Shown: one piece after another, positions 3,054 to 56,789 of the stretch
How the letters are laid out: each line of letters begins with the position of its first letter
Position numbering within the stretch: the stretch's first letter is position 1
From: Embleya scabrispora
GTDB taxonomy: Bacteria; Actinomycetota; Actinomycetes; Streptomycetales; Streptomycetaceae
Assembly (NCBI RefSeq): GCF_002024165.1
Contig: NZ_MWQN01000001.1
Location: 3,823,365-3,887,364 of the forward strand
DNA: 64,000 nucleotides
Direction: 5' to 3'
Notes under the pieces: model-generated
The model's database searches: none
Seen by the model: only the letters and a program-made list of their open reading frames with translations
Told to the model about the DNA's origin: nothing
Program-made: the position numbers and the translations under genes

Positions 3054-3541
3054 CCTCAAGCGCCGGACGGGCTGGTGTTGGGTTGGCCTCAAGCGCCGGC
3101 CGGGCTGGGAGGGTTTGTGTCCGACGTTGGGCGGTGCTCTGGTTGGGTTGGCCTCAAACGCCGGCCGGGCTGAGTGGCCTCAAGCGCCGGCCGGGCTGGA
3201 AGGTTTGTGTCTGACGTCGGGTGTTGGTCTGGTTGGGTTGGCCTCAAGCGCCGGCCGGGCTGGGAGGGATTGTGTCCGACGTCGGGTGTTGGTCTGGCTG
3301 GGTTGGCCTCAAGCGCCGGCCGGGCTGGAAGGTTTGCGTCTGACGTCGGGTGTTGGTCTGGTTGCGGTGGCCTCAAGCGCCGGCCGGGCTGAGTGGCCTC
3401 AAGCGCCGGCCGGGCTGGAGGGTTCTGGTCTGGCGTCGGGTGGCGGTTTGGTTGCGGTGGCTTCAAGCGCCGGCCGGGCTGGGTGGGTTGTGTGGCGTCG
3501 AGTGTTGGTTTGGGTGGTGGTCTCAAGTGCCGGCTGGGGTG
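3054..3541. repeat. Array of ten 21-bp GC-rich repeats, about 65-bp period
   Basis: Ten copies of CCTCAAGCGCCGGCCGGGCTG-like sequence start at about 3054, 3087, 3152, 3178, 3242, 3307, 3371, 3397, 3461 and 3521 (the last degenerate). Starts are mostly 64-65 bases apart, with shorter steps of 26 or 33, and the DNA between copies is also similar (G/T-rich, containing GACGTCGGGTGTTGGT). The whole 3028-3707 stretch has no credible gene; open frames through it are artefacts of the repeat. The core resembles a hairpin half common between streptomycete genes. It is not a CRISPR array because the spacers are not unique. Confidence 0.85.
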
Positions 3542-3647
3542 TTTGGCTCGGTCGGTGTTTGAGGGGCGTGGCTGTGGTTGGGTGGTTGCTTGGGGTGCCT
3601 GGCCGTTCGGGTTTGCTTGGCCCTCTCGGTTTCGTCCGGCTCGCCCC

Positions 3648-3707: not shown

Positions 3708-5906
3708 CTATTTCGCCACTGCTAGGGCGTCCAAGGCGACTGTGCCGCCGCCCCTTGGCATGACCATCAACGGGTTGATGTCCAACTCGGCTATCTCGTC
3801 GCCTAGTTCCAACGCCATGCGTTGTACTCGCATGACCACGTCGACGAGGGCGTCCAGGTCGGCCGGGGGTTGGCCTCGGAGGCCCTGGAGGCATTTGAGG
3901 CCGCGGAGTTCGCCGAGCATGCGCTTGACCTCGTAGGCGCCGAACGGCGGGACGCCGATGGCGATGTCGTCGAAGACCTCGACGAAGATGCCGCCGAGGC
4001 CGACCGAGACCGTCGGGCCGAACAGGTCGTCGTGGGAGATGCCCACCACCATTTCCACGCCGCGGTCCACCTGTTGGCAGACCAACACGCCCTCCAGGCG
4101 TCCCGCGCCCGCCTCCTTGGCCGCGTCGGTGATCTCGCGGTACGCGTCCCGCACCTGGCTCGCCGAGCGCAGGCCCAGTTTGACCAGGCCCAGGTCGCTC
4201 TTGTGCGGCAGTTGCGGGCCGCACGCCTTCATCACCACCGGGTAGCCGATCAGCCCCGCCGCCCGCACCGCCGCCGCGGCCGAGGTGACCAGTTGCTCGC
4301 GCGGCACCCGGATCCCGTACGTGCGCAGCAGTTGCTTCGCCGAGTGCTCCGACAGCGGCTTGCCCGAGGACAGCAGCCGCTTCGCCTTCGCCGCTGCGGG
4401 CGAGGCGGTGCGCGGCACGTCCTCGAACGGGGACGAGTACTGGGTGCGGAAGCGGTGGTAGTCGAAGTAGGCCCGCAGCGCCCGGACGCAGTTGCCGAAG
4501 GTGCGGAAGACCACGACCCTGTTCGACTTGAGGAGTATCTCGCGGTAGGCGTCCTCGTCGCCCACCGGCGAACCCCACACCACGCAGACCACCTTGTCGG
4601 TCGCCTCCGCCGCGTCCACCAGGTCCTGCGCGAGCCGGTCGCTCATCGGCGGGAACGCGCCGGTGATCGGACAGACCAGCACGCCGATCGCCGGGTCGGC
4701 CAAAATCGTGTCGATGATCTTCCGGCCGCGCTCGTCGCCCGCCGGATGCCCGCCGTTGTCCACGGGGTTGGACACGGTCAGATACGGCGGGATCCACTCG
4801 TGCAGCTTCTCCTGCGTGGCCCGCTCCAACTGCGGTACGGACAGGCCCTCGGCGGCGGCGAGGTCGGCCATGTGCGCGCCGGTGCCGCCGGAGATCGAGT
4901 ACACGCACACCCCCTGCGCGAGCGGGGTGCGGGTACGCGCGAACAACTGCGACGTGTCGATGAGTTCGTCGAGGCCGTCGACCCGGGTGACCCCGTACTG
5001 GCGGAACACCGCCGAAGCGGTGCGGTCGCCGCCGGTCAGCTTGCCGGTGTGCGACTGGGCCATGCGCGCGCCGGTCTCGGTTCGGCCGACCTTGACCACC
5101 ACCACCGGTACACCCTGCCGCGCCGCGTGGTCGGCCGCCAGCGCGAAGGTGCGCCCGTCCTTGAACCCCTCGACGTAGGCGGCGATCACCCCGACCTCCT
5201 CCTGGTCGGCGAAATGCCGCACGAAGTCCGCGATCTCCAGGTCGGCCTCGTTGCCCACCGGCGCCCAGTGCGAGACCCGAATCCCGATCTCCTGCGCCGC
5301 GAAGACCGGTCGACCCTGGTGCCCGCTCTGGGTGATCAGCGCGATCGCGGGACCGTCGAGGTCGGTGCGGAACTCCTCGAACGCGTTCAGGTTCGTGTTC
5401 GGCCCGAGCAGCCGCAGCGAACCGCCCGAGGTGAGTTGGGCCAGCCGGGCCTGGGCCTCGGCCCCGGCGTTGCCCGCCTCGGCGAAGCCGGCCGCGAATA
5501 CGACCGCGAAACCCACGCCGGCGCCCGCCAGTTGCTCCAGCACCTCGGCCGGGTCGCCGACCAGGACGACCGCGAGGTCGACCGGTTCGGGCACCGCCGA
5601 GATGTCCGCGTGGCACGGCCGGCCGGCGATGCGTTCGTGCTTGGGGTTGACCGGGAACAACCGAGCGCCGACCCGCTCGGCCCACGCGATCAGCTGTGCG
5701 GTGATCCGCGCGCCGGGTCGGCCCTCGGTGTCCGAGGCCCCGATCACCGCCACCGTGCGAGGTCGGAAGAAGCGGTCCAGGTCGGCGGGGCGGAGCGCGA
5801 GTGGTCGGCCGGTCACGTCGAGTTCGGCCGACGGATCCGCGTTCGCGGTGACGCTGGTTCGAGTGTGCCCCGGGAAGTGGTGTCCTCTGCTGTCGTGAAG
5901 CATCAT
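3708..5906 (-). CDS. NDP-forming acyl-CoA synthetase (acetate--CoA ligase family)
   Basis: A 732-residue single-chain protein. An N-terminal CoA-binding Rossmann domain (RTVAVIGASDTEGRPG near residue 50) and succinyl-CoA-ligase-like domains (ALITQSGHQGRPVF near 190; QSHTGKLTG near 280) are followed by a C-terminal ATP-grasp domain (GYPVVMKACGPQLPHKSD near 560). Enzymes of this family make an acyl-CoA from acid, CoA and ATP with release of ADP and phosphate; related proteins also act as acyltransferases. AAGGGA precedes the first ATG. Operator copy B lies 72 bases upstream. The likely role is activation of a carboxylate in the catabolic island; the substrate is unknown. Confidence 0.88.
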   Translation of the reverse strand: MMLHDSRGHHFPGHTRTSVTANADPSAELDVTGRPLALRPADLDRFFRPRTVAVIGASDTEGRPGARITAQLIAWAERVGARLFPVNPKHERIAGRPCHADISAVPEPVDLAVVLVGDPAEVLEQLAGAGVGFAVVFAAGFAEAGNAGAEAQARLAQLTSGGSLRLLGPNTNLNAFEEFRTDLDGPAIALITQSGHQGRPVFAAQEIGIRVSHWAPVGNEADLEIADFVRHFADQEEVGVIAAYVEGFKDGRTFALAADHAARQGVPVVVVKVGRTETGARMAQSHTGKLTGGDRTASAVFRQYGVTRVDGLDELIDTSQLFARTRTPLAQGVCVYSISGGTGAHMADLAAAEGLSVPQLERATQEKLHEWIPPYLTVSNPVDNGGHPAGDERGRKIIDTILADPAIGVLVCPITGAFPPMSDRLAQDLVDAAEATDKVVCVVWGSPVGDEDAYREILLKSNRVVVFRTFGNCVRALRAYFDYHRFRTQYSSPFEDVPRTASPAAAKAKRLLSSGKPLSEHSAKQLLRTYGIRVPREQLVTSAAAAVRAAGLIGYPVVMKACGPQLPHKSDLGLVKLGLRSASQVRDAYREITDAAKEAGAGRLEGVLVCQQVDRGVEMVVGISHDDLFGPTVSVGLGGIFVEVFDDIAIGVPPFGAYEVKRMLGELRGLKCLQGLRGQPPADLDALVDVVMRVQRMALELGDEIAELDINPLMVMPRGGGTVALDALAVAK

Positions 5907-9039: not shown

Positions 9040-9346
9040 CCTCAAGCGCCGGACGGGCTGGTTTTGCTTGGTTCGGATCCGTGGGTTGCGGTTTAACCCG
9101 TTGTCCTCAAGCGCCGGACGGGCTGGGGTTGCTTGGTTCGGATCCGTGGGTTGCGGTTTAACCCGTTGTCCTCAAGCGCCGGACGGGCTGGGTTGCTTGG
9201 TTCGGATCCGTGGGTTGCGGGTGAACCCGTTGTCCTCAAGCGCCGGACGGGCTGGGGTTGCTCGGCTTGGGTCCGAGGGTTGGGGCCGCGCCCGGTTGTC
9301 CTCGAGCGCCGGACGGCTGGAGTCGGGCCGTCCGGCGTTTGAGGAC
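9040..9346. repeat. Second array of 21-bp repeats, 64-66-bp period, ending in an inverted copy
   Basis: Copies of CCTCAAGCGCCGGACGGGCTG begin at 9040, 9105, 9170, 9234 and 9300. The intervening DNA (GGTTCGGATCCGTGGGTTGC and similar) is nearly identical from unit to unit. An inverted copy at about 9328-9346 faces the last direct copy, so that pair can form a long hairpin at the end of the acyl-CoA dehydrogenase gene and near the end of the convergent TetR gene, as a bidirectional terminator would. The period equals that of the array at 3054-3541. Confidence 0.85.
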
Positions 9347-48187: not shown

Positions 48188-48571
48188 ATGAGCAAGGATC
48201 CCACCGACGTCGCCCTGCTGACCGCCCGCGCCCTGGTCCTGGCCGACCTGCGTACGCACGGCGCCGAGACCCCCGAGACGGTGACCGTCGTCGAGCACGC
48301 CCTGGTCGAGCGCAAGTGGTGGGTCGAGCAGTGGCCCGACGGCGCCGCCTTCGTGCCCGGCCTGATCGGCCAGGACGTGCAGGAGGCGCTGGCCGAGCAG
48401 GGCCGGGTGTGGCCGCCGTGCCCGCTGCACGACGACCACCCGCTCTACCTCGAACCCGAACTCGGCGAGGATCCGCACTGGGTCTGCGAACGGGCCGGCA
48501 CCGTGATCGCCCCGCTCGGCGCGCTGACCTCGACTCAGCCGCCGAACGAGCGCGCGGTCAGGGACGCGTAG
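48188..48571 (+). CDS. Conserved hypothetical protein
   Basis: A 127-residue protein not recognised beyond similarity in style to streptomycete proteins of unknown function. It holds two Trp-rich patches (KWWVEQWPDGAAFVPGL and HWVCERAG) and CPLHDDHPLYLEPELGEDPHWVC, with Cys and His that could bind a metal. ATG 48188 has weak upstream GGGCAC. Its last 37 bases overlap the end of the convergent ARPP-1-like gene. Confidence 0.75.
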   Translation: MSKDPTDVALLTARALVLADLRTHGAETPETVTVVEHALVERKWWVEQWPDGAAFVPGLIGQDVQEALAEQGRVWPPCPLHDDHPLYLEPELGEDPHWVCERAGTVIAPLGALTSTQPPNERAVRDA

Positions 48572-49542
48572 ATCGGCCGGTCGGCACCCACCGCGTACGC
48601 GCCGACCCAGCCCTCGCCCTCGGCCCGACCCACGGTGACCCCGGCGTGGGCGGCCTCTCCGGTCGTGGTCACCACCTGGTCGGCACCGGCGCCCAAGGCC
48701 ACCTCGGCCCGCCGCTGCTCCTCGGCGTCGGCGGCCCGCAGCGCCTCGGCGAGCACGTCGTACGGGTCGCCGGCCGCCGCGCCGTCGCCGCCGGGCAGGG
48801 TCAGCACGGTCCGGCTCGGCGGCGGATCGGCCGGGTCGTGCAGGCCGTGGCGGATCGCCTCCGCGCCGTAGCAGAACCGGATCAGCGGCGCCCACATCGC
48901 CGACCAGTACGCGCGTGAGGGTGCCCGCTCGATCCCGGCGATCTCGCCGTCGAGCAGCACCACCGCGCCCACCTGGTCCGGCTCGCACTCGAACTCGGCG
49001 ACGAAGCGCTCCAGTTCGAGGGCGTAGTGCTTGGTGAACAGCGCCAGGTTGCCGGTCTCGGCGAGGCCGGCGGAGGCGTTGAACCGCTGCACGGCCGGCC
49101 ACAGCCGGCTGTACCCGTCCGCGTCGGCACTCGCCGAGGCGGCGGCGCGCAGCGTGAGCGGCAACACGGCGAGCGGCTGCGGCCCCGACGGGATCAGCCC
49201 CGGCTGGGTCTGCTGCACGCACATCGCCGCGTCGAACGCCAACTCGCCCGAGGGCTCGACCAGCGCGGCCCGGGGCATCGCGTGGTCCTGCGCGCCGCGC
49301 TTCACCAGCACCGCGAGGTGACACGGGACCAGCGCGACATGCGGGCCGTGGTTGACGAAGGTGAGCGTGCCGTAGCCGCTGGTGCCGATCCACAGATCGG
49401 TGGGCACGGTGACGGTCGGCGCGTCGACGGTGTCGCCGAGCAGCGGCAGCACCTGCATACGACCGACGCTCTGCACCCGCCCGAGGGTGCAGTCGGCCAG
49501 CAGGTCGCCGATCGGCAGCGTGTCGTGGGCGAGGGTGGTCAT
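48535..49542 (-). CDS. ARPP-1-like protein coupled to the vWA protein
   Basis: A 335-residue protein. The pattern TLTFVNHGPHVALVPCHLAVLVKRGAQDHAMPRAALVEPS ... CVQQTQPGL, and later QVGAVVLLDGEIAGIERA ... WAPLIRFCYGAEAI, follows the ARPP-1 domain (named from association with ADP-ribosylglycohydrolase and rhodanese-phosphatase genes and discussed with RNA-repair systems). The biochemical role is unknown. ATG 49542 overlaps the stop of the upstream vWA gene (ATGA), so the two products are coupled. A Cys and QD/QQ residues in the first half are candidate functional sites. Assignment is by visual pattern and moderate. Confidence 0.65.
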   Translation of the reverse strand: MTTLAHDTLPIGDLLADCTLGRVQSVGRMQVLPLLGDTVDAPTVTVPTDLWIGTSGYGTLTFVNHGPHVALVPCHLAVLVKRGAQDHAMPRAALVEPSGELAFDAAMCVQQTQPGLIPSGPQPLAVLPLTLRAAASASADADGYSRLWPAVQRFNASAGLAETGNLALFTKHYALELERFVAEFECEPDQVGAVVLLDGEIAGIERAPSRAYWSAMWAPLIRFCYGAEAIRHGLHDPADPPPSRTVLTLPGGDGAAAGDPYDVLAEALRAADAEEQRRAEVALGAGADQVVTTTGEAAHAGVTVGRAEGEGWVGAYAVGADRPIYASLTARSFGG

Positions 49543-51059
49543 GCGGTCACCTCCGGGTGGGCCAGGCGCAGCAGCGCGGGGACGGCGGCGGTCGGATCGG
49601 TGGCCAACATCAGTCGGCACCAGGCGAGTTCGAGGGCTTCGGGACGGTGCACGGGGGCGAGCGGCAGGTCCGGCGCGTAGCCGCGCAGACCGGCCGCCTC
49701 GGCGGCGAGGACGGGGCAGAGCTGGACCACCGGCACCGCGACGCCGAGGGTGCGCGCCGCGTCGAGCACCTGGGCGAACCGGCCGGCGGGCGCGTTCTCG
49801 TAGCCGTCGCCGACCACCACGATCAGCTCCGCGCCGGTACGCAACGCGGCGACCAGGGCTTCGGCGGCGGCGGTCGGCCCGGCGGGGTGGACCAGCCGGC
49901 CGTCCGGGACGCCGCCGATCCACACGTCGTGGCAGGTGCCCGCCGCCGCCCGCAGTGCGTCGCGCAGGGCGAGCACGGCGGCGATCGGCCGCAGCGGCTG
50001 GTCGGTGCCGCCACGCATGGAGGCGGAACCGTCCAGGACGAGGGCGACCCGGCGGCCGGCCAGGTCCAGCCCGGCCGCGGTGTGCGCGGCGCGCCGGTCG
50101 AGCGCGGCGGCGACCTCGGCGGTCATGCCTTCCGCGAACGCGTACAGGTACAGCCGGACCGCGTCGTAGCGGTCGAGATCGACCTCGACCGTCACACCCG
50201 CCCGAGCGGCCTGCCGCTGCCCGGCCAGCCGCTGTCCGACGGTGAGCCGGGCGGCGGTCAGCTCCAGGACGCGGGCCGGCTTCGCGTCCGGGTGGTACCG
50301 GCCGCGCAGCCCCTCCAGGGTTTCCAGCGGCAGCGCCGCGCCCGCGTCCAGGTCGGTGCGGGCGGCCCGATACGCGACCGGGAGCGGCAGCGTGTACGGC
50401 CCCTCGGCGCCGAGCACGAACGCGACGCACTCGCGAACCGCGGCGGGATCGGCCCGGTCGACCGCCCAGCGGTCGATCTCGCGGGCGAGGATGCGGTGTT
50501 CCTTCGAGTCGAGTTCGCCTCCCGCGAGGTGCTTGGTCAAGATCGCGCGCAGGATGCCGCTCAGCCGCAGACCCCACGCGTGCCGCAGGGCGGTGGCCAG
50601 CTTGTCCCGGTAGCGCACCGACCACAGCTCCAGGGAGGTGGAGCCGAGCACGGTGCGCAGGATCAGTCGGCGCACCCGCGCGTTGTTCACCCGCCGCTCG
50701 GCCAGCAGGGCGAACAGCTTGAGCCGGCGCGGCACGGTCAACGCGGCCACCGCGGCGTACACCGTGTCGCCGTCGTCCTCCCGCGCGGGCGTGCCGAGCA
50801 GGTGCAACACGCCGAGCTGCCGGCTGCGGTCGGTGGCCCCGGGGGAGCACACCAGACCCGCGTACAGCCGCCGGTCCAGCGCGGCCATCGTGCGGTGCGC
50901 GTCCTCTTCGAGGGCGAGCTGCTCGTCGCGGGTGTTGTAGAAGGAGGCCCGTCCGGTCGCGGCCACGGCGACGTCCAGGAAACGTACGACGGTGGCGGCG
51001 GCCTCGGCACGGGCGGGATTGTCGGCGCTGAGCGCGCGGCTGATCTCGGTCTCGGTCAT
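49539..51059 (-). CDS. vWA-domain protein with Ro60/TROVE-like architecture
   Basis: A 506-residue protein. Residues 1-330 are almost all helical (FYNTRDEQLALEEDAHRTMAALDRRL; RRVNNARVRRLILRTVLGS; SVRYRDKLATALRHAWGLRLSGILRAIL), then a von Willebrand A domain begins at RRVALVLDGSASMRGG with an intact MIDAS (D343, S345, S347) and later VVVGDGYENAP. Helical ring plus C-terminal vWA, at this size, is the plan of Ro60 and bacterial Rsr. The sequence is divergent, so I call it TROVE-like. Two Y-RNA-like elements lie directly upstream on the same strand. GGGGGAG precedes the ATG, and the gene is coupled to the ARPP-1-like gene. Confidence 0.75.
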   Translation of the reverse strand: MTETEISRALSADNPARAEAAATVVRFLDVAVAATGRASFYNTRDEQLALEEDAHRTMAALDRRLYAGLVCSPGATDRSRQLGVLHLLGTPAREDDGDTVYAAVAALTVPRRLKLFALLAERRVNNARVRRLILRTVLGSTSLELWSVRYRDKLATALRHAWGLRLSGILRAILTKHLAGGELDSKEHRILAREIDRWAVDRADPAAVRECVAFVLGAEGPYTLPLPVAYRAARTDLDAGAALPLETLEGLRGRYHPDAKPARVLELTAARLTVGQRLAGQRQAARAGVTVEVDLDRYDAVRLYLYAFAEGMTAEVAAALDRRAAHTAAGLDLAGRRVALVLDGSASMRGGTDQPLRPIAAVLALRDALRAAAGTCHDVWIGGVPDGRLVHPAGPTAAAEALVAALRTGAELIVVVGDGYENAPAGRFAQVLDAARTLGVAVPVVQLCPVLAAEAAGLRGYAPDLPLAPVHRPEALELAWCRLMLATDPTAAVPALLRLAHPEVTA

Positions 51060-51079
51060 CGAAATGGGCTCCCCCGTGG

Positions 51080-51184
51080 GCACCCGGGGCAGGTCGCGGG
51101 TCCGGTGTCGGTCTCGGTACGAAGCCGGGACCGCTTCCAACCCATGGGAAACGGCACTGTACGAACACGCAGTTCCCCGGGTGC
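51080..51184 (-). ncRNA. Putative bacterial Y RNA, element 2
   Basis: Read on the minus strand, a perfect 10-bp closing stem (GCACCCGGGG at 51184-51175 with CCCCGGGTGC at 51089-51080) is followed by an internal loop AACT/GACCTG and a second stem GCGTGTTCG (51170-51162) with CGGACCCGC (51104-51096), one U-C mismatch inside. The enclosed part can form an 8-bp hairpin (CCGUUUCC/GGAAGCGG) and a second hairpin with a 7-base loop. The 3' end lies 20 bases before the vWA start and touches its ribosome site, so it may also be a leader element. Confidence 0.7.
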
Positions 51185-51190
51185 GATGGC

Positions 51191-51298
51191 ACGCGACTTC
51201 GGGCAGGTCACGGGTCCCGGATAGGGATTCGAACCCCAAGCACCCCAAAAGCGCTTGTACGCCAAGACAGAAGGAACACGTAGTTCCCGAAGTCGCGT
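51191..51298 (-). ncRNA. Putative bacterial Y RNA (YrlA-type), element 1, with tRNA-like domain
   Basis: On the minus strand, a perfect 13-bp closing stem (51298-51286 with 51203-51191), then the same AACT/GACCTG internal loop as element 2, then ACGTGTTCC/GGGACCCGT. Inside is a tRNA-like fold: a D-like arm UGU-CUUGGCGU-ACA, a 5-bp arm with a 7-base loop UUUUGGG, and a canonical T-arm UGGGG-UUCGAAU-CCCUA (51238-51222). There is no acceptor stem or CCA end, so it is not a tRNA. Six bases separate it from element 2. Position beside a Ro60-like gene matches known bacterial Y RNAs. Confidence 0.75.
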
Positions 51299-51318
51299 CA
51301 CGAGCCTACGAGCGAGCG

Positions 51319-51338: not shown

Positions 51339-51917
51339 TCACCGTGAGGGGAAGTCCGAGGTGTCCAGGTCGATGCCGAACGGCGCGGGGACGGCGACCG
51401 GTCCGCCGAAGTCGACGCGCTGGATGCGCTGGTAGACCTTGCCGTCCGGCTCGGAGTACAACGTCGCCGCAGGACCGTCCTTGTCCCACCGATCGACGAG
51501 CAGGTAGAGCGGAATCGGTCCGTGTGCGTATGCCCGCAGCTTGTCGACACGGTCGGTGCCGGCATTGCTCGGAGAGGTGATCTCGGCGACGAGAAGGACC
51601 CGATCCGCCGGGGTCGGCGTGGCGACGTCTTCCCGTGCCATCACCACCAGGTCGGGAATACACAGCCGGCCGACCGACATGATCTCCACGCCCAGATGCT
51701 GAAAGACACCGCATCCTTCGGGGACGGCTCGGCGCAGCTGCCAATGAAGGTCGTCCGCGATCAATTCATGCCTGTGCCCCGGCGGCGGCGACATCGTGAT
51801 GTTCTCTCCGTCGAACTCGGCGCGCCATCCTTCGGGCACGTCCAATCCCTGCCACATGGTCACGATTTCGCGCCAGGTGGTGCTCACCTCGATCACGGGT
51901 GCGGGCATCTCGTCCAC
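51339..51917 (-). CDS. Uma2-family (DUF820) endonuclease-like protein
   Basis: A 192-residue PD-(D/E)XK-fold protein. GWRAEFDGENITMSPPPGHRHELIADDLHWQL at the start, then IPDLVVMA (catalytic Asp) and LLVAEITSPSN (Glu) form the nuclease-like core. This family is expanded in streptomycetes and cyanobacteria; the biological role is unknown. Its stop lies about 40 bases upstream of the first Y-RNA-like element on the same strand. An ATG three codons later is an alternative start. Confidence 0.85.
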   Translation of the reverse strand: MDEMPAPVIEVSTTWREIVTMWQGLDVPEGWRAEFDGENITMSPPPGHRHELIADDLHWQLRRAVPEGCGVFQHLGVEIMSVGRLCIPDLVVMAREDVATPTPADRVLLVAEITSPSNAGTDRVDKLRAYAHGPIPLYLLVDRWDKDGPAATLYSEPDGKVYQRIQRVDFGGPVAVPAPFGIDLDTSDFPSR

Positions 51918-54877: not shown

Positions 54878-55156
54878 TCAGCAACCCCCGGCGACCGCCG
54901 GGATGATCGAAACGGTGCCCTTGTCGGGGATCGCCGTGGCGAGCCCGTCGGCGAAGCGCACGTCCTCGTCGTCCACGTACAGATTCACAAAGCGACGCAG
55001 CTTGCCCTCGTCGTCGAGGATGCGCGCGCGAATTCCGGTGTGGTCCTTTTCCAGGGAGTCCAGGACCTCGGCGAGCGTGGTGCCCTCGGCGGACACCTCC
55101 GCCGCCCCGCCCGTGTAGGTGCGCAGGATGGTCGGGATGCGAACGGAGACGCTCAT
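54878..55156 (-). CDS. cysO: CysO/MoaD-like ubiquitin-fold sulfur-carrier protein ending in GGC
   Basis: A 92-residue beta-grasp protein close to CysO: VRIPTILRTYTGGAAEVSAEGTTLAEVLDSL, RRFVNLYVDDEDVRFADGLATAIPD and SIIPAVAGG. CysO carries sulfide as a C-terminal thiocarboxylate for cysteine synthesis. Here the reading frame adds one Cys after the Gly-Gly, so the mature carrier would need removal of that residue before activation. It starts inside the thrC stop (ATGA) and shares the SAM riboswitch of thrC. A molybdopterin role (MoaD) is less likely given the CysO-like sequence. Confidence 0.88.
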   Translation of the reverse strand: MSVSVRIPTILRTYTGGAAEVSAEGTTLAEVLDSLEKDHTGIRARILDDEGKLRRFVNLYVDDEDVRFADGLATAIPDKGTVSIIPAVAGGC

Positions 55157-56427
55157 GCGAGGCCGGCCTTTCGGAAGGAGTCCAGGGTGGGTCGAATGGT
55201 CGCGGTGGGTCCGGTCGTCGGCGTGACCGCGTCCAACGTCTTGAGGCCGTCGCCCGTGTTGAGCACGACCGTCTCGGCGTCCGGATCCAGCGCGCCGGAC
55301 TCGAGCAGCTTGCGCAGGCAGCCCACGGTGACCCCGCCCGCGGTCTCGCCGAAGATGCCCTCGGTACGGGCGAGCAGCTTCATCGCCTCGACCACCTCGA
55401 CGTCGTTCACGTCCTCCACCGCGCCGCCCGTGCGCTTGCACACGTCGAGCACGTAGGGACCGTCGGCGGGGTTGCCGATCGCGAGCGACTTGGCGATCGT
55501 GTCCGGCTGCACCGGGCGGATCACGTCGTGCCCGGCCTTCCACGCGGCGGCCACCGGGGAACACCCCGTCGCCTGGGCGCCGAAGATCCGGTACGGCGCG
55601 TCCTCGACCAGACCCAGCGCGATCAACTCGCGGAAGCCCTTGTCGATCTTGGTCAGCTGCGACCCCGACGCGATGGGAATGACGATCTGCTCCGGCAGTT
55701 TCCAGCCGAGTTGTTCGGCGATCTCGTAGGCGAGCGTCTTGGAACCCTCGCCGTAGTAGGGCCGCAGGTTGACGTTGACGAAGCCCCAGCTCTCGCCGGC
55801 CGGGTCGCCGATCAGCTCCGAACAGAACCGGTTGACCTCGTCGTAGGTCCCCTCGATGGCGACCAGCTCGCCGCCGTAGACCGCCGCCGTGACGACCTTG
55901 CCGGCCTCCAGGTCGGCCGGGATGAACACACAGCTGCGCAGGCCCACCCGGGCGGCGGCGGCACCCACCGCGCCGGCCAGGTTGCCCGTGGACGAGCAGG
56001 ACAGCGTGGTGAAGTCGAAGGTGCGCGCGGCCTCGACCGCGATCGCCACCACGCGGTCCTTGAAGGAGTGCGTCGGGTTCCCGGAGTCGTCCTTGACGTG
56101 CAGGTTGCGCACGCCCAGCTCGCGGCCCAGGTTCTCGGCCCGGACGAGCTTGGTGAAGCCGGGGTTCAGGCTGGGCCGGGACGCGACGTCCGCGGACACC
56201 GGCAGCAGCGGCGCGTAGCGCCAGATGTTGTGCGGCCCGGCCTCGATCCGCTCCCGCGTCACGGTGCCGAACTCGTAGGCGACCTCCAGGGGGCCGAAAC
56301 AGGACTCGCAGGCGTACTTCGGGCCGAGCTCCGTGCGCTCTCCGCACTCGCGACACGACAGCGCGACGGCCGGACCGAAGGAGGTGGGGGTGGCGCTGGT
56401 GGTGCGGGTGGCGGTGGGTGTCGCCAT
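55153..56427 (-). CDS. thrC: Threonine synthase
   Basis: A 424-residue PLP enzyme. The N-terminus has two CxxC pairs (SCRECGE and ACESCFG), then GNPTHSFKDRVVA with the PLP Lys, SCSSTGNLAGAVGAAAARVG and the PLP phosphate-binding region. It converts O-phosphohomoserine to threonine. A SAM-I riboswitch lies directly upstream, with its P1 stem about 19 bases before the start codon, so control by S-adenosylmethionine is expected. It is coupled to the sulfur-carrier gene downstream. Confidence 0.95.
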   Translation of the reverse strand: MATPTATRTTSATPTSFGPAVALSCRECGERTELGPKYACESCFGPLEVAYEFGTVTRERIEAGPHNIWRYAPLLPVSADVASRPSLNPGFTKLVRAENLGRELGVRNLHVKDDSGNPTHSFKDRVVAIAVEAARTFDFTTLSCSSTGNLAGAVGAAAARVGLRSCVFIPADLEAGKVVTAAVYGGELVAIEGTYDEVNRFCSELIGDPAGESWGFVNVNLRPYYGEGSKTLAYEIAEQLGWKLPEQIVIPIASGSQLTKIDKGFRELIALGLVEDAPYRIFGAQATGCSPVAAAWKAGHDVIRPVQPDTIAKSLAIGNPADGPYVLDVCKRTGGAVEDVNDVEVVEAMKLLARTEGIFGETAGGVTVGCLRKLLESGALDPDAETVVLNTGDGLKTLDAVTPTTGPTATIRPTLDSFRKAGLA

Positions 56428-56445
56428 GGCGAGGGCCTTTCTGTC

Positions 56446-56595
56446 CTCATCTTTACCCGTGGGGTCCCACGGGCCGGACTTGGCACCTGTCCGAATCGTC
56501 GGCCGCTCGCTCGCGCCGAAAGCGCGTCACGAGGAATGACGATCGGATGGTTGCCGGGGCTTCAACGGGCCGTTCCCTCTGCCCCTCTGGATGAG
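56446..56595 (-). promoter_or_regulatory. SAM-I (S-box) riboswitch upstream of thrC
   Basis: On the minus strand CTCATCCAGAGGGGCAGAGG opens the element; GGCCCGTTGAAGCCCCGGCAA, CAGGTGCCAAGTCC and the closing GATGAG follow in order. P1 is CTCATC/GATGAG, the P2-P3-P4 cores match the S-box consensus, and P4 is the perfect CCCGTGGG-AC-CCCACGGG hairpin. There is no terminator-antiterminator pair before the ATG 19 bases later, so control of translation start is the likely mode. The divergent gpgS promoter lies in the rest of the 362-base gap. Confidence 0.95.
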
Positions 56596-56789
56596 CTGCT
56601 ATGGCGGTGGACACACCCTTCGCCGGGTGGCCGGTCCGCGTTTGTCCGGTCCGACGTGCGATCGTCGTTACCGGTGACGACGACTGTAACCGAACCGGTG
56701 CCGCGTCGATCATCCGGTCCACCTCGCGAGACGATAAAGGGTGGAACGACCGAGGCCGGAACACCGGCGACGACAGGGGATCTTCGAAC

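What the first reader, a model, noticed from the sequence alone, without database searches (positions are those of the whole stretch)
48535..51298. Divergent Ro60-like vWA protein, ARPP-1-like partner and two Y-RNA-like elements form one module
Seen: on one strand and in order, two structured RNA elements, a 506-residue protein with a helical N-terminus and C-terminal vWA (MIDAS D343/S345/S347), and a 335-residue ARPP-1-like protein coupled by an ATGA overlap. Known: bacterial Rsr proteins (Ro60 orthologues, TROVE plus vWA) are encoded beside Y RNAs and act in RNA surveillance and maturation; ARPP-1 has been discussed in RNA-repair neighbourhoods. Inference: this is a Ro60-type ribonucleoprotein whose protein has diverged beyond easy TROVE recognition, with an extra dedicated partner.
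Basis: partly seen in the sequence, partly recalled or inferred. Interest (0 to 1): 0.92.

Follow-up and report, generated by a model that had tools for sequence, protein, structure and literature searches.

The report
Ro60-like particle with tRNA-mimic RNAs
An actinomycete bacterium carries an unrecognised relative of the human Ro60 RNA-binding protein together with two tRNA-like small RNAs and a fixed partner protein, and the same protein pair, often near tRNA genes, turns up in other bacteria and in large phage genomes, which points to a widespread tRNA-guarding particle.

Summary
The 506-residue protein has no TROVE hit in Pfam, and its ring alone gives no significant profile match, but its predicted structure matches Ro60/Rsr over full length: the only eight PDB chains at E <= 0.001 are Ro60/Rsr. 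Two paralogous RNAs lie upstream (51191-51298, 51078-51186, minus strand), with compensatory changes, a T-arm mimic and a -10-like box 4 nt before the first. A model of the first RNA hits none of 61 related genomes except the five it was built from, the five with a close orthologue. ARPP-1 follows with an ATGA overlap. A second branch (about 30% identity) has another conserved upstream RNA and Pfam ARPP-2 as partner. First-branch homologues occur in Minicystis, three MAGs (one labelled archaeal) and 35 distinct large viral loci; ARPP was found in all of these, and tRNA genes are often nearby. Some viral RNAs look like whole tRNA cloverleaves nested in a Y-type stem. I read it as a divergent Ro-type ribonucleoprotein that guards, or decoys attacks on, tRNA. 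Fold and RNA structure are well supported by computation; transcription, binding and function are inferred. Eight Actinomadura-type loci searched showed no convincing RNA.

The parts
51303..51308 (-). -10-like hexamer TAGGCT ending 4 nt before RNA Ya
   Evidence: TANNNT 4-9 nt before the RNA in 5 of 5 Ya and 25 of 26 branch-2 RNAs, against 2 of 1000 and 21 of 5200 random positions (pattern chosen after seeing the sequences)
51191..51298 (-). RNA Ya: outer stem (11 bp in the consensus, 13 bp here), inner stem, T-arm-like and possible anticodon-arm-like hairpins
   Evidence: covariation in 5 sequences; model R2 has no hit in the other 56 of 61 genomes
51239..51255 (-). possible anticodon-arm mimic in Ya (5 bp, 7-nt loop, U33, 'anticodon' TTG)
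   Evidence: 5 of 5 Ya have a 5-bp/7-nt arm, 4 of 5 with U33; the energy folds pair this stretch otherwise
51224..51236 (-). T-arm mimic GGGTTCGAATCCC in Ya
   Evidence: stem pairs kept in 5 of 5
51078..51186 (-). RNA Yb, paralogue of Ya
   Evidence: found by Ya model R2 at E 1.9e-7 here and at E 2.7e-6 to 2.2e-5 in the four other loci
49539..51059 (-). Ro60-like protein P0001: helical ring plus C-terminal vWA
   Evidence: AF2 pLDDT 87.5; the eight PDB matches at E <= 0.001 are all Ro60/Rsr
48535..49542 (-). ARPP-1 protein P0002, with motif C108-V-Q-Q-T-Q113
   Evidence: PF20208 E 8.5e-23; the motif or a close form of it in the nine ARPP-1 rows, absent from the five ARPP-2 rows

Best explanation
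The module makes a Ro60-type ribonucleoprotein. Two short RNAs, Ya and Yb, are made from a promoter just before Ya. Their outer and inner stems with the conserved GGGAACT/ACCTGCCC internal loop dock on the outside of the helical ring of the Ro-like protein, and their tRNA-like end points outward. The ARPP protein, made by translational coupling, is the enzymatic or client-handling partner. I think the particle watches over tRNA: the tRNA-like module either decoys tRNA-attacking nucleases or modifiers, or holds the ring shut until damaged tRNA displaces it, and ARPP then acts on the damaged or ADP-ribosylated end. Shown by computation: fold, gene order, RNA structure, co-occurrence, and in some phages cloverleaves nested in such stems. 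Inferred: transcription, binding, tRNA as the target, ARPP chemistry.
For: Fold: the only 8 of 350,542 PDB chains at E <= 0.001 are Ro60/Rsr, E 6.2e-6 to 7.9e-5, full-length alignments; next best E 0.014. Profile-profile with 26 ORFs from actinobacterial TROVE loci: 91.7%, E 7.8e-7 over the last ring repeats plus vWA. RNA. Branch 2: RNA in 19 and ARPP-2 in 20 of the same 61 genomes, one copy each; 18 of the 19 RNA hits lie beside the protein (these 18 are training sequences or copies of them, so the news is that no further copy exists). Four Polyangia RNAs outside the training set were found at E 3.3e-8 to 3.4e-12, each upstream of the gene (L164-L167). tRNA link: the Minicystis module sits in a 13.3-kb same-strand array of 54 predicted tRNAs covering all 20 amino acids; 136 of 136 tRNAs predicted near 35 viral modules lie on the module's strand, and complete cloverleaves follow 8 of 31 viral motif copies directly. 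R2 also hits the RNA upstream of a canonical TROVE gene (L055, E 0.003) and the nested-tRNA RNA of a viral contig (L206, E 0.008) (E-values of these models are rough).
Against: Pfam TROVE is not reached, and profile comparison of the ring alone is not significant (E 0.16 and 0.091). TM-scores to Ro60 are 0.39-0.48 with rmsd 8.8-13.2, so the ring differs. R2 does not find the Minicystis or Kapaibacterium RNAs or those of 33 of 35 viral loci at E <= 1, and one of the two viral hits is only E 0.4; those RNAs rest on a short motif, chosen after the fact, plus folding, and a strict stem test was weak. The motif is absent from the Pacearchaeota and Microscilla loci and from 16 of 35 viral loci. The anticodon arm in Ya competes with other foldings. 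Branch-2 RNA shows no T-arm. Eight Actinomadura-type loci gave no convincing RNA hit. Of 20 viral neighbours scanned with Pfam none is a known RNA-repair enzyme, though 11 had no hit at all. tRNA density near the viral modules was not compared with the rest of the contigs. No expression or binding data.
Confidence: 0.67

Rival explanations
1. Ya and Yb are cis-regulatory leaders in the 5' UTR that control the operon (for example by sensing tRNA or by feedback from the Ro-like protein), not stable RNAs of a particle.
For: Yb ends 18 nt before the start codon, in the usual place of a leader; in branch 2 too the RNA lies directly upstream.
Against: Two tandem paralogous copies with closed outer stems; tRNA-like modules; in some viral contigs motif copies lie 2-4 kb upstream (L188, L211, L213) or after the pair (L212 at 8579); bacterial Y RNAs are likewise encoded beside rsr (PMC7790460, passages).
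Confidence: 0.17
2. The pair is an ADP-ribose conflict system of the kind published for ARPP: the vWA protein is a peptide-binding chaperone, ARPP acts on ribose or ADP-ribose, and the RNAs are a side feature.
For: PMC9503650 passages report a vWA chaperone and ARPP among ARG-centred systems and propose action on ribose of ADPr.
Against: Here the vWA protein has the full Ro60 architecture, and the branch-2 RNA is conserved from Actinomycetota to Polyangia; no ARG, Nudix or phosphatase gene among the seven window neighbours scanned.
Confidence: 0.1
3. It is an ordinary Rsr/YrlA locus, merely diverged.
For: Same overall plan: RNA with tRNA mimic upstream of a ring-vWA protein; several canonical actinobacterial TROVE loci show such RNAs by eye.
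Against: The same genome has two canonical TROVE loci; the family is below the Pfam TROVE threshold, has its own RNA families and an ARPP partner.
Confidence: 0.06

Closest known systems
Bacterial Ro60 orthologue Rsr with Y RNAs (YrlA), e.g. Salmonella rsr-yrlBA-rtcBA and Deinococcus Rsr
   Same: Ring plus vWA fold, vWA MIDAS residues, short RNA with a tRNA-like module encoded next to the protein (PMC7790460, passages)
   Different: Not recognised by Pfam TROVE; no rtcB/rtcA among the seven window neighbours scanned; ARPP-1/ARPP-2 partner; RNA not matched by Rfam, though Rfam also misses the RNAs of canonical loci; tRNA module can be an intact cloverleaf
ARPP (PF20208) ADP-ribose conflict systems
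   Same: PF20208 domain with conserved Cys/Gln; a vWA protein is also reported in such systems (PMC9503650, passages)
   Different: Partner is a Ro-like ring protein with RNAs; the words Ro60, TROVE and Y RNA do not occur in that paper's main text
tRNA array units of bacteria and phages
   Same: Same-strand tRNA clusters, considered a putative anti-defence system (PMC12803027, search listing only)
   Different: Here a Ro-like/ARPP pair lies inside or beside the tRNAs, and some tRNAs sit in Y-type stems

Membership tests
Ro60/Rsr (TROVE) proteins | Helical ring followed by vWA domain | tested here: met
   AF2 model and Foldseek
Ro60/Rsr (TROVE) proteins | Match to the curated TROVE model PF05731 | tested here: not met
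   no TROVE hit at E <= 1 for P0001 or for five homologues; so it is not filed under PF05731, only as a distant relative by fold
Ro60/Rsr (TROVE) proteins | Sequence-profile similarity in the ring | tested here: inconclusive
   E 7.8e-7 when the vWA is included; E 0.16 and 0.091 for the ring alone
Ro60/Rsr (TROVE) proteins | MIDAS residues in vWA | tested here: met
   D343/S345/S347 invariant in 12 of 12 rows and 18 of 18; DxSxS somewhere in 48 of 48
Ro60/Rsr (TROVE) proteins | Binds Y RNA on the ring surface | not testable with these tools
   needs biochemistry
Bacterial Y RNA (YrlA type) | Closed stem plus tRNA-like module | tested here: met
   Ya: covarying stems and T-arm mimic, possible anticodon arm; full cloverleaf in 8 viral copies. 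Branch-2 RNA: stems met, no T-arm seen
Bacterial Y RNA (YrlA type) | Match to an Rfam family | tested here: inconclusive
   no Y RNA family at E <= 10, but Rfam also finds none at its gathering score at 20 TROVE loci
Bacterial Y RNA (YrlA type) | Encoded beside a Ro-type gene and transcribed | tested here: inconclusive
   adjacency met; -10-like box present; no RNA data
ARPP-1 (PF20208) | Score above curated cut-off and conserved Cys/Gln | tested here: met
   81.5 bits against 27; CVQQTQ motif; that these are the published Cys and Gln is my inference

The most novel reading that the evidence does not exclude
Bacteria, perhaps archaea, and large phages share an undescribed class of Ro-type particle whose RNA is a tRNA, or a piece of one with freely varying anticodon, mounted on a Ro-binding stem, with ARPP as its effector enzyme. 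It serves as a decoy or sensor for tRNA-targeting attack and is deployed in phages together with tRNA genes.
Probability: 0.4. Interest if true: 0.94.

Novelty: new variant of a known kind. Interest (0 to 1): 0.86.

Why it matters
Ro60 is a human autoantigen whose normal RNA-surveillance job is still debated, and bacterial Rsr has been studied in few species (recalled, except that PMC7790460 says functions were studied only in Deinococcus). A second, large Ro-like family with its own RNAs, a steady partner of unknown chemistry (ARPP-1/ARPP-2) and homes in phages near tRNA genes gives a direct way to ask what the tRNA mimicry of Y RNAs is for. It also gives context to two Pfam families and to tRNA-like genes with odd anticodon loops that annotation would call pseudo-tRNAs.

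Tried and rejected
Sequence-only links: Pfam and NCBIfam gave only sub-threshold hits for P0001, and PHROGs and PADLOC none. A profile search of PDB sequences gave one hit at E 0.38, to a capsid protein. Rfam gave no Y RNA, and the control at 20 TROVE loci shows that this absence means little.

The idea that one RNA model would unite all loci was rejected: R1 does not hit branch-1 loci, and R2 misses Minicystis, Kapaibacterium and most viral loci. In whole genomes R2 also recovers Yb in only 3 of the 5, against 5 of 5 in the smaller search. A strict 9-bp outer-stem test on 35 motif copies was weak (5 of 35 own windows against 50 of 1150 other-locus windows; with one mismatch 22 of 35 against 358 of 1150; the earlier variant gave 5 of 35 against 65 of 1150). 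A pairing-probability test was better (24 of 35 above 0.5 against 107 of 444 random windows, p 1e-6). The motif was chosen by eye from Yb and the Minicystis and Kapaibacterium copies; the form used on viral loci is a relaxed one. It misses Yb of L040 and has one unrelated hit in L041.

ARPP-1 was modelled well (pLDDT 89.4), but the best PDB match has E 0.19, so its fold gives no mechanism. Plasmids: 0 of 72,556 records. Further relatives of the Microscilla locus: 1 of 198 genomes, itself. Neighbour genes of viral loci gave no RNA-repair context.

Rows dropped before counts: viral loci L179, L180, L183, L193, L195, L200, judged copies from equal coordinates and scores. Identical branch-2 RNAs were collapsed, and L157 left out, in A7; L164-L167 were not in A7 and were found afterwards by R1. 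L168 (a fragment) and L169-L171 (weak hits) were not followed. 19 of the 27 Actinomadura-type loci were not searched for RNA.
Full report
WHAT IS IN THE WINDOW. On the minus strand, in transcription order, lie two structured RNA elements (Ya 51191-51298, Yb 51078-51186), a 506-residue protein (49539-51059) and a 335-residue protein (48535-49542) whose ATG overlaps the previous stop as ATGA. The second protein is ARPP-1 (PF20208, 81.5 bits, cut-off 27). The first has only sub-threshold family hits, a vWA model among them, and no TROVE at E <= 1. The nearest named homologue is in Embleya scabrispora (88% identity), so the genome is probably an Embleya. It holds two canonical TROVE loci elsewhere.

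THE PROTEIN IS A RO60 FOLD. An AlphaFold2 model from an 18-row alignment has mean pLDDT 87.5 and pTM 0.83: 21 helices followed by a vWA domain. In Foldseek against 350,542 PDB chains only eight reach E <= 0.001, and all eight are Ro60 or Deinococcus Rsr, aligned over 537-557 columns with probability 1.00. The best non-Ro chain is at E 0.014. TM-scores are moderate (0.39-0.48, rmsd 8.8-13.2), so the ring is not a close copy. By sequence the link is partial: profile-profile comparison with 26 ORFs from actinobacterial TROVE loci gives 91.7% and E 7.8e-7 over the last ring repeats and the vWA, and with 48 rows 93.2% and 2.8e-7. The ring alone is not significant (E 0.16 and 0.091), although the alignment puts FYN of this family on TFYE of TROVE.

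THE RNAS ARE REAL. Ya was aligned from five loci (two Embleya-type, three Yinghuangia-type genomes). Of 29 pairs, 8 have a two-sided change, 12 cells in all; 0 of 500 shuffles reach the covariation score, and 94.5% of cells pair against 28-50% when partners are slid. A covariance model of Ya alone (R2) finds Yb, a few nt downstream, in all five loci at E 1.9e-7 to 2.2e-5, so the two are paralogues. Over 61 whole genomes R2 hits the five genomes it was built from, which are the five with a close orthologue, and none of the other 56. A -10-like TANNNT lies 4-5 nt before Ya in 5 of 5 (random positions 2 of 1000). Ya carries a T-arm mimic, kept in 5 of 5. Two to seven nt before it a 5-bp arm with a 7-nt loop can form in 5 of 5, with U33 in 4 of 5, and the would-be anticodons all differ (TTG, CCG, CAT, GCA, TCA); such an arm with U33 arises in 1.7-9.7% of shuffled segments. 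Energy folding pairs that stretch in other ways, so the anticodon arm is a proposal.

A SECOND BRANCH SHOWS THE SAME LOGIC. Full-length homologues at about 30% identity occur in the same and related genomes and in Polyangia (18 of 144 genomes at E <= 0.001, three of them weak). One conserved RNA of about 84 nt lies upstream in 18 of 19 actinomycete loci by pattern and in 14 of 14 Polyangia loci read, by pattern or by model R1. In 26 of these RNAs, 7 of 20 pairs change on both sides, 34 cells; 0 of 500 shuffles reach that or the covariation score, 17 of 500 reach the number of pair types. The -10-like box is there in 25 of 26 (random 21 of 5200). The next ORF starts within or at the end of the vWA gene in 21 of 21 loci, with a 4-nt overlap in 19. 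Ten of ten tested hit Pfam ARPP-2 (E 1e-99 to 1e-133); in L167 the vWA frame runs out of register and the next ORF is not recognisable. In 61 genomes R1 is found in 19 and ARPP-2 in 20, one copy each. Eighteen of the 19 RNA hits are training sequences or copies of them, each beside the protein, so the independent result is the lack of any other copy and the one new hit. That hit, in G020, lies next to a C-terminal piece of ARPP-2 with no room for a Ro-like gene. G003 has the protein and ARPP-2, but only the 3' half of its RNA remains, next to what reads by eye as a transposase gene. No held paper names PF22549, PF20208 or an 'ARPP-1/ARPP-2 domain'.

BEYOND ACTINOMYCETES. One named scan gave 34 loci, among them Minicystis rosea (47%), a Kapaibacterium MAG (41%), a 4-kb contig of a MAG labelled Pacearchaeota (32%), an uncultured Microscilla (27%) and many Actinomadura. 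ARPP-1 follows in five of five tested (L110-L113, L116). In Minicystis the pair lies inside 54 predicted tRNAs for all 20 amino acids, all on its strand, over 13.3 kb. The Microscilla locus has seven tRNAs upstream. Minicystis and Kapaibacterium each have two copies of the motif GRGRACTG-N6-12-TWCAG within 500 nt before the gene and none elsewhere in the locus (shuffles 0.01 and 0.007). They fold into outer stem, internal loop and inner stem enclosing a cloverleaf (L110 about 3436-3564; L111 second copy, with a 6-nt anticodon loop) or, read by eye, a tRNA in permuted order (L110 about 3729-3865). Several canonical actinobacterial TROVE loci show the same order, T-arm, closed acceptor, D-arm, again by eye. 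The Pacearchaeota and Microscilla loci lack the motif.

PHAGES. One of 50,697 phage records, a 462-kb uncultured phage, encodes a homologue (35% over residues 23-504). Two scans of IMG/VR brought 40 predicted viral loci, contigs up to 436 kb. Together these are 41 loci, 35 after dropping copies. An ARPP gene is present in 41 of 41, within about 0.3 kb after the Ro-like gene except in L197 and L201 (about 1.2 kb) and L217 (upstream). In the 35 loci, 136 tRNAs are predicted, all 136 on the module's strand; four loci have none. The relaxed motif occurs 31 times on that strand and 0 times on the other, in 19 of 35 loci. In 8 of 31 it is followed at once by a complete tRNA, among them a 'stop' TTA, a Cys-ACA and one with a 2-nt anticodon call. 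Flanks of motif copies pair at long range more than random windows (24 of 35 against 107 of 444), though the strict stem test was weak. R2, built only from the five actinomycete RNAs, hits the nested-tRNA RNA of L206 at E 0.008 and otherwise only L188 at E 0.4.

HOW IT LIKELY WORKS. [quoted passage not shown] The anatomy here fits that frame: ring, docking stem, outward tRNA mimic. The tRNA arrays, the variable or broken anticodon loops and the phage setting favour tRNA protection or decoy. ARPP is proposed to act on ribose through a conserved Cys and Gln (PMC9503650, passages). P0002 has a fitting C108-V-Q-Q-T-Q113, kept across the ARPP-1 rows with small changes and absent from the ARPP-2 rows, so the two branches may differ in chemistry. 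Its predicted fold has no PDB counterpart. These functional steps are inference.

AGAINST. No transcript or binding data. The Pfam TROVE model is not reached, so I do not file the protein under PF05731. Eight Actinomadura-type loci searched had no convincing RNA: none with R1, and with R2 only an E 0.14 hit on the other strand of L116. Branch-2 RNA lacks an obvious tRNA part. None of 20 viral neighbours scanned is a known RNA-repair enzyme. The archaeal label rests on one short MAG contig, and the IMG/VR contigs are predicted viruses. Papers central to bacterial Y RNAs were not held, so the novelty claim covers only the searches; one search listed 15 of 44 papers.

Noticed in passing
L110 and its genome, G772:C1:8254562-8267813: Array of 54 predicted tRNAs for all 20 amino acids on one strand around the Ro-like/ARPP-1 pair in Minicystis rosea, with further tRNA-like pieces that carry long insertions.
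   Followed up: partly
G000:C1:1854409-1856804 (L043, L146): The same genome carries a second module of the other branch: RNA of 85 nt, Ro-like protein, ARPP-2.
   Followed up: yes
window 56444-56597 (-): SAM riboswitch (RF00162) ahead of a PLP-dependent enzyme (55153-56427) that I take for threonine synthase; the riboswitch also lies near the module in four related loci (L039-L042).
   Followed up: no
window 9073-9157 and 9138-9221 (+): Two overlapping tRNA-Leu (CAA) predictions.
   Followed up: no
G020:C1:540896-541390: Degenerate branch-2 locus: RNA plus a C-terminal ARPP-2 piece with no Ro-like gene between.
   Followed up: partly
L010 2800-3500 (-): Branch-2 RNA of a same-genus genome with only its 3' half left beside a gene that reads by eye as a transposase.
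   Followed up: partly
L206 5603, 8662, 8751; L189 5649; L209 5553: Viral tRNA-like genes with 2-nt or 4-nt anticodon calls near the module.
   Followed up: partly
window 51339-51917 (-): Uma2-family endonuclease gene just upstream of the RNAs; whether it is kept in relatives was not tested.
   Followed up: no
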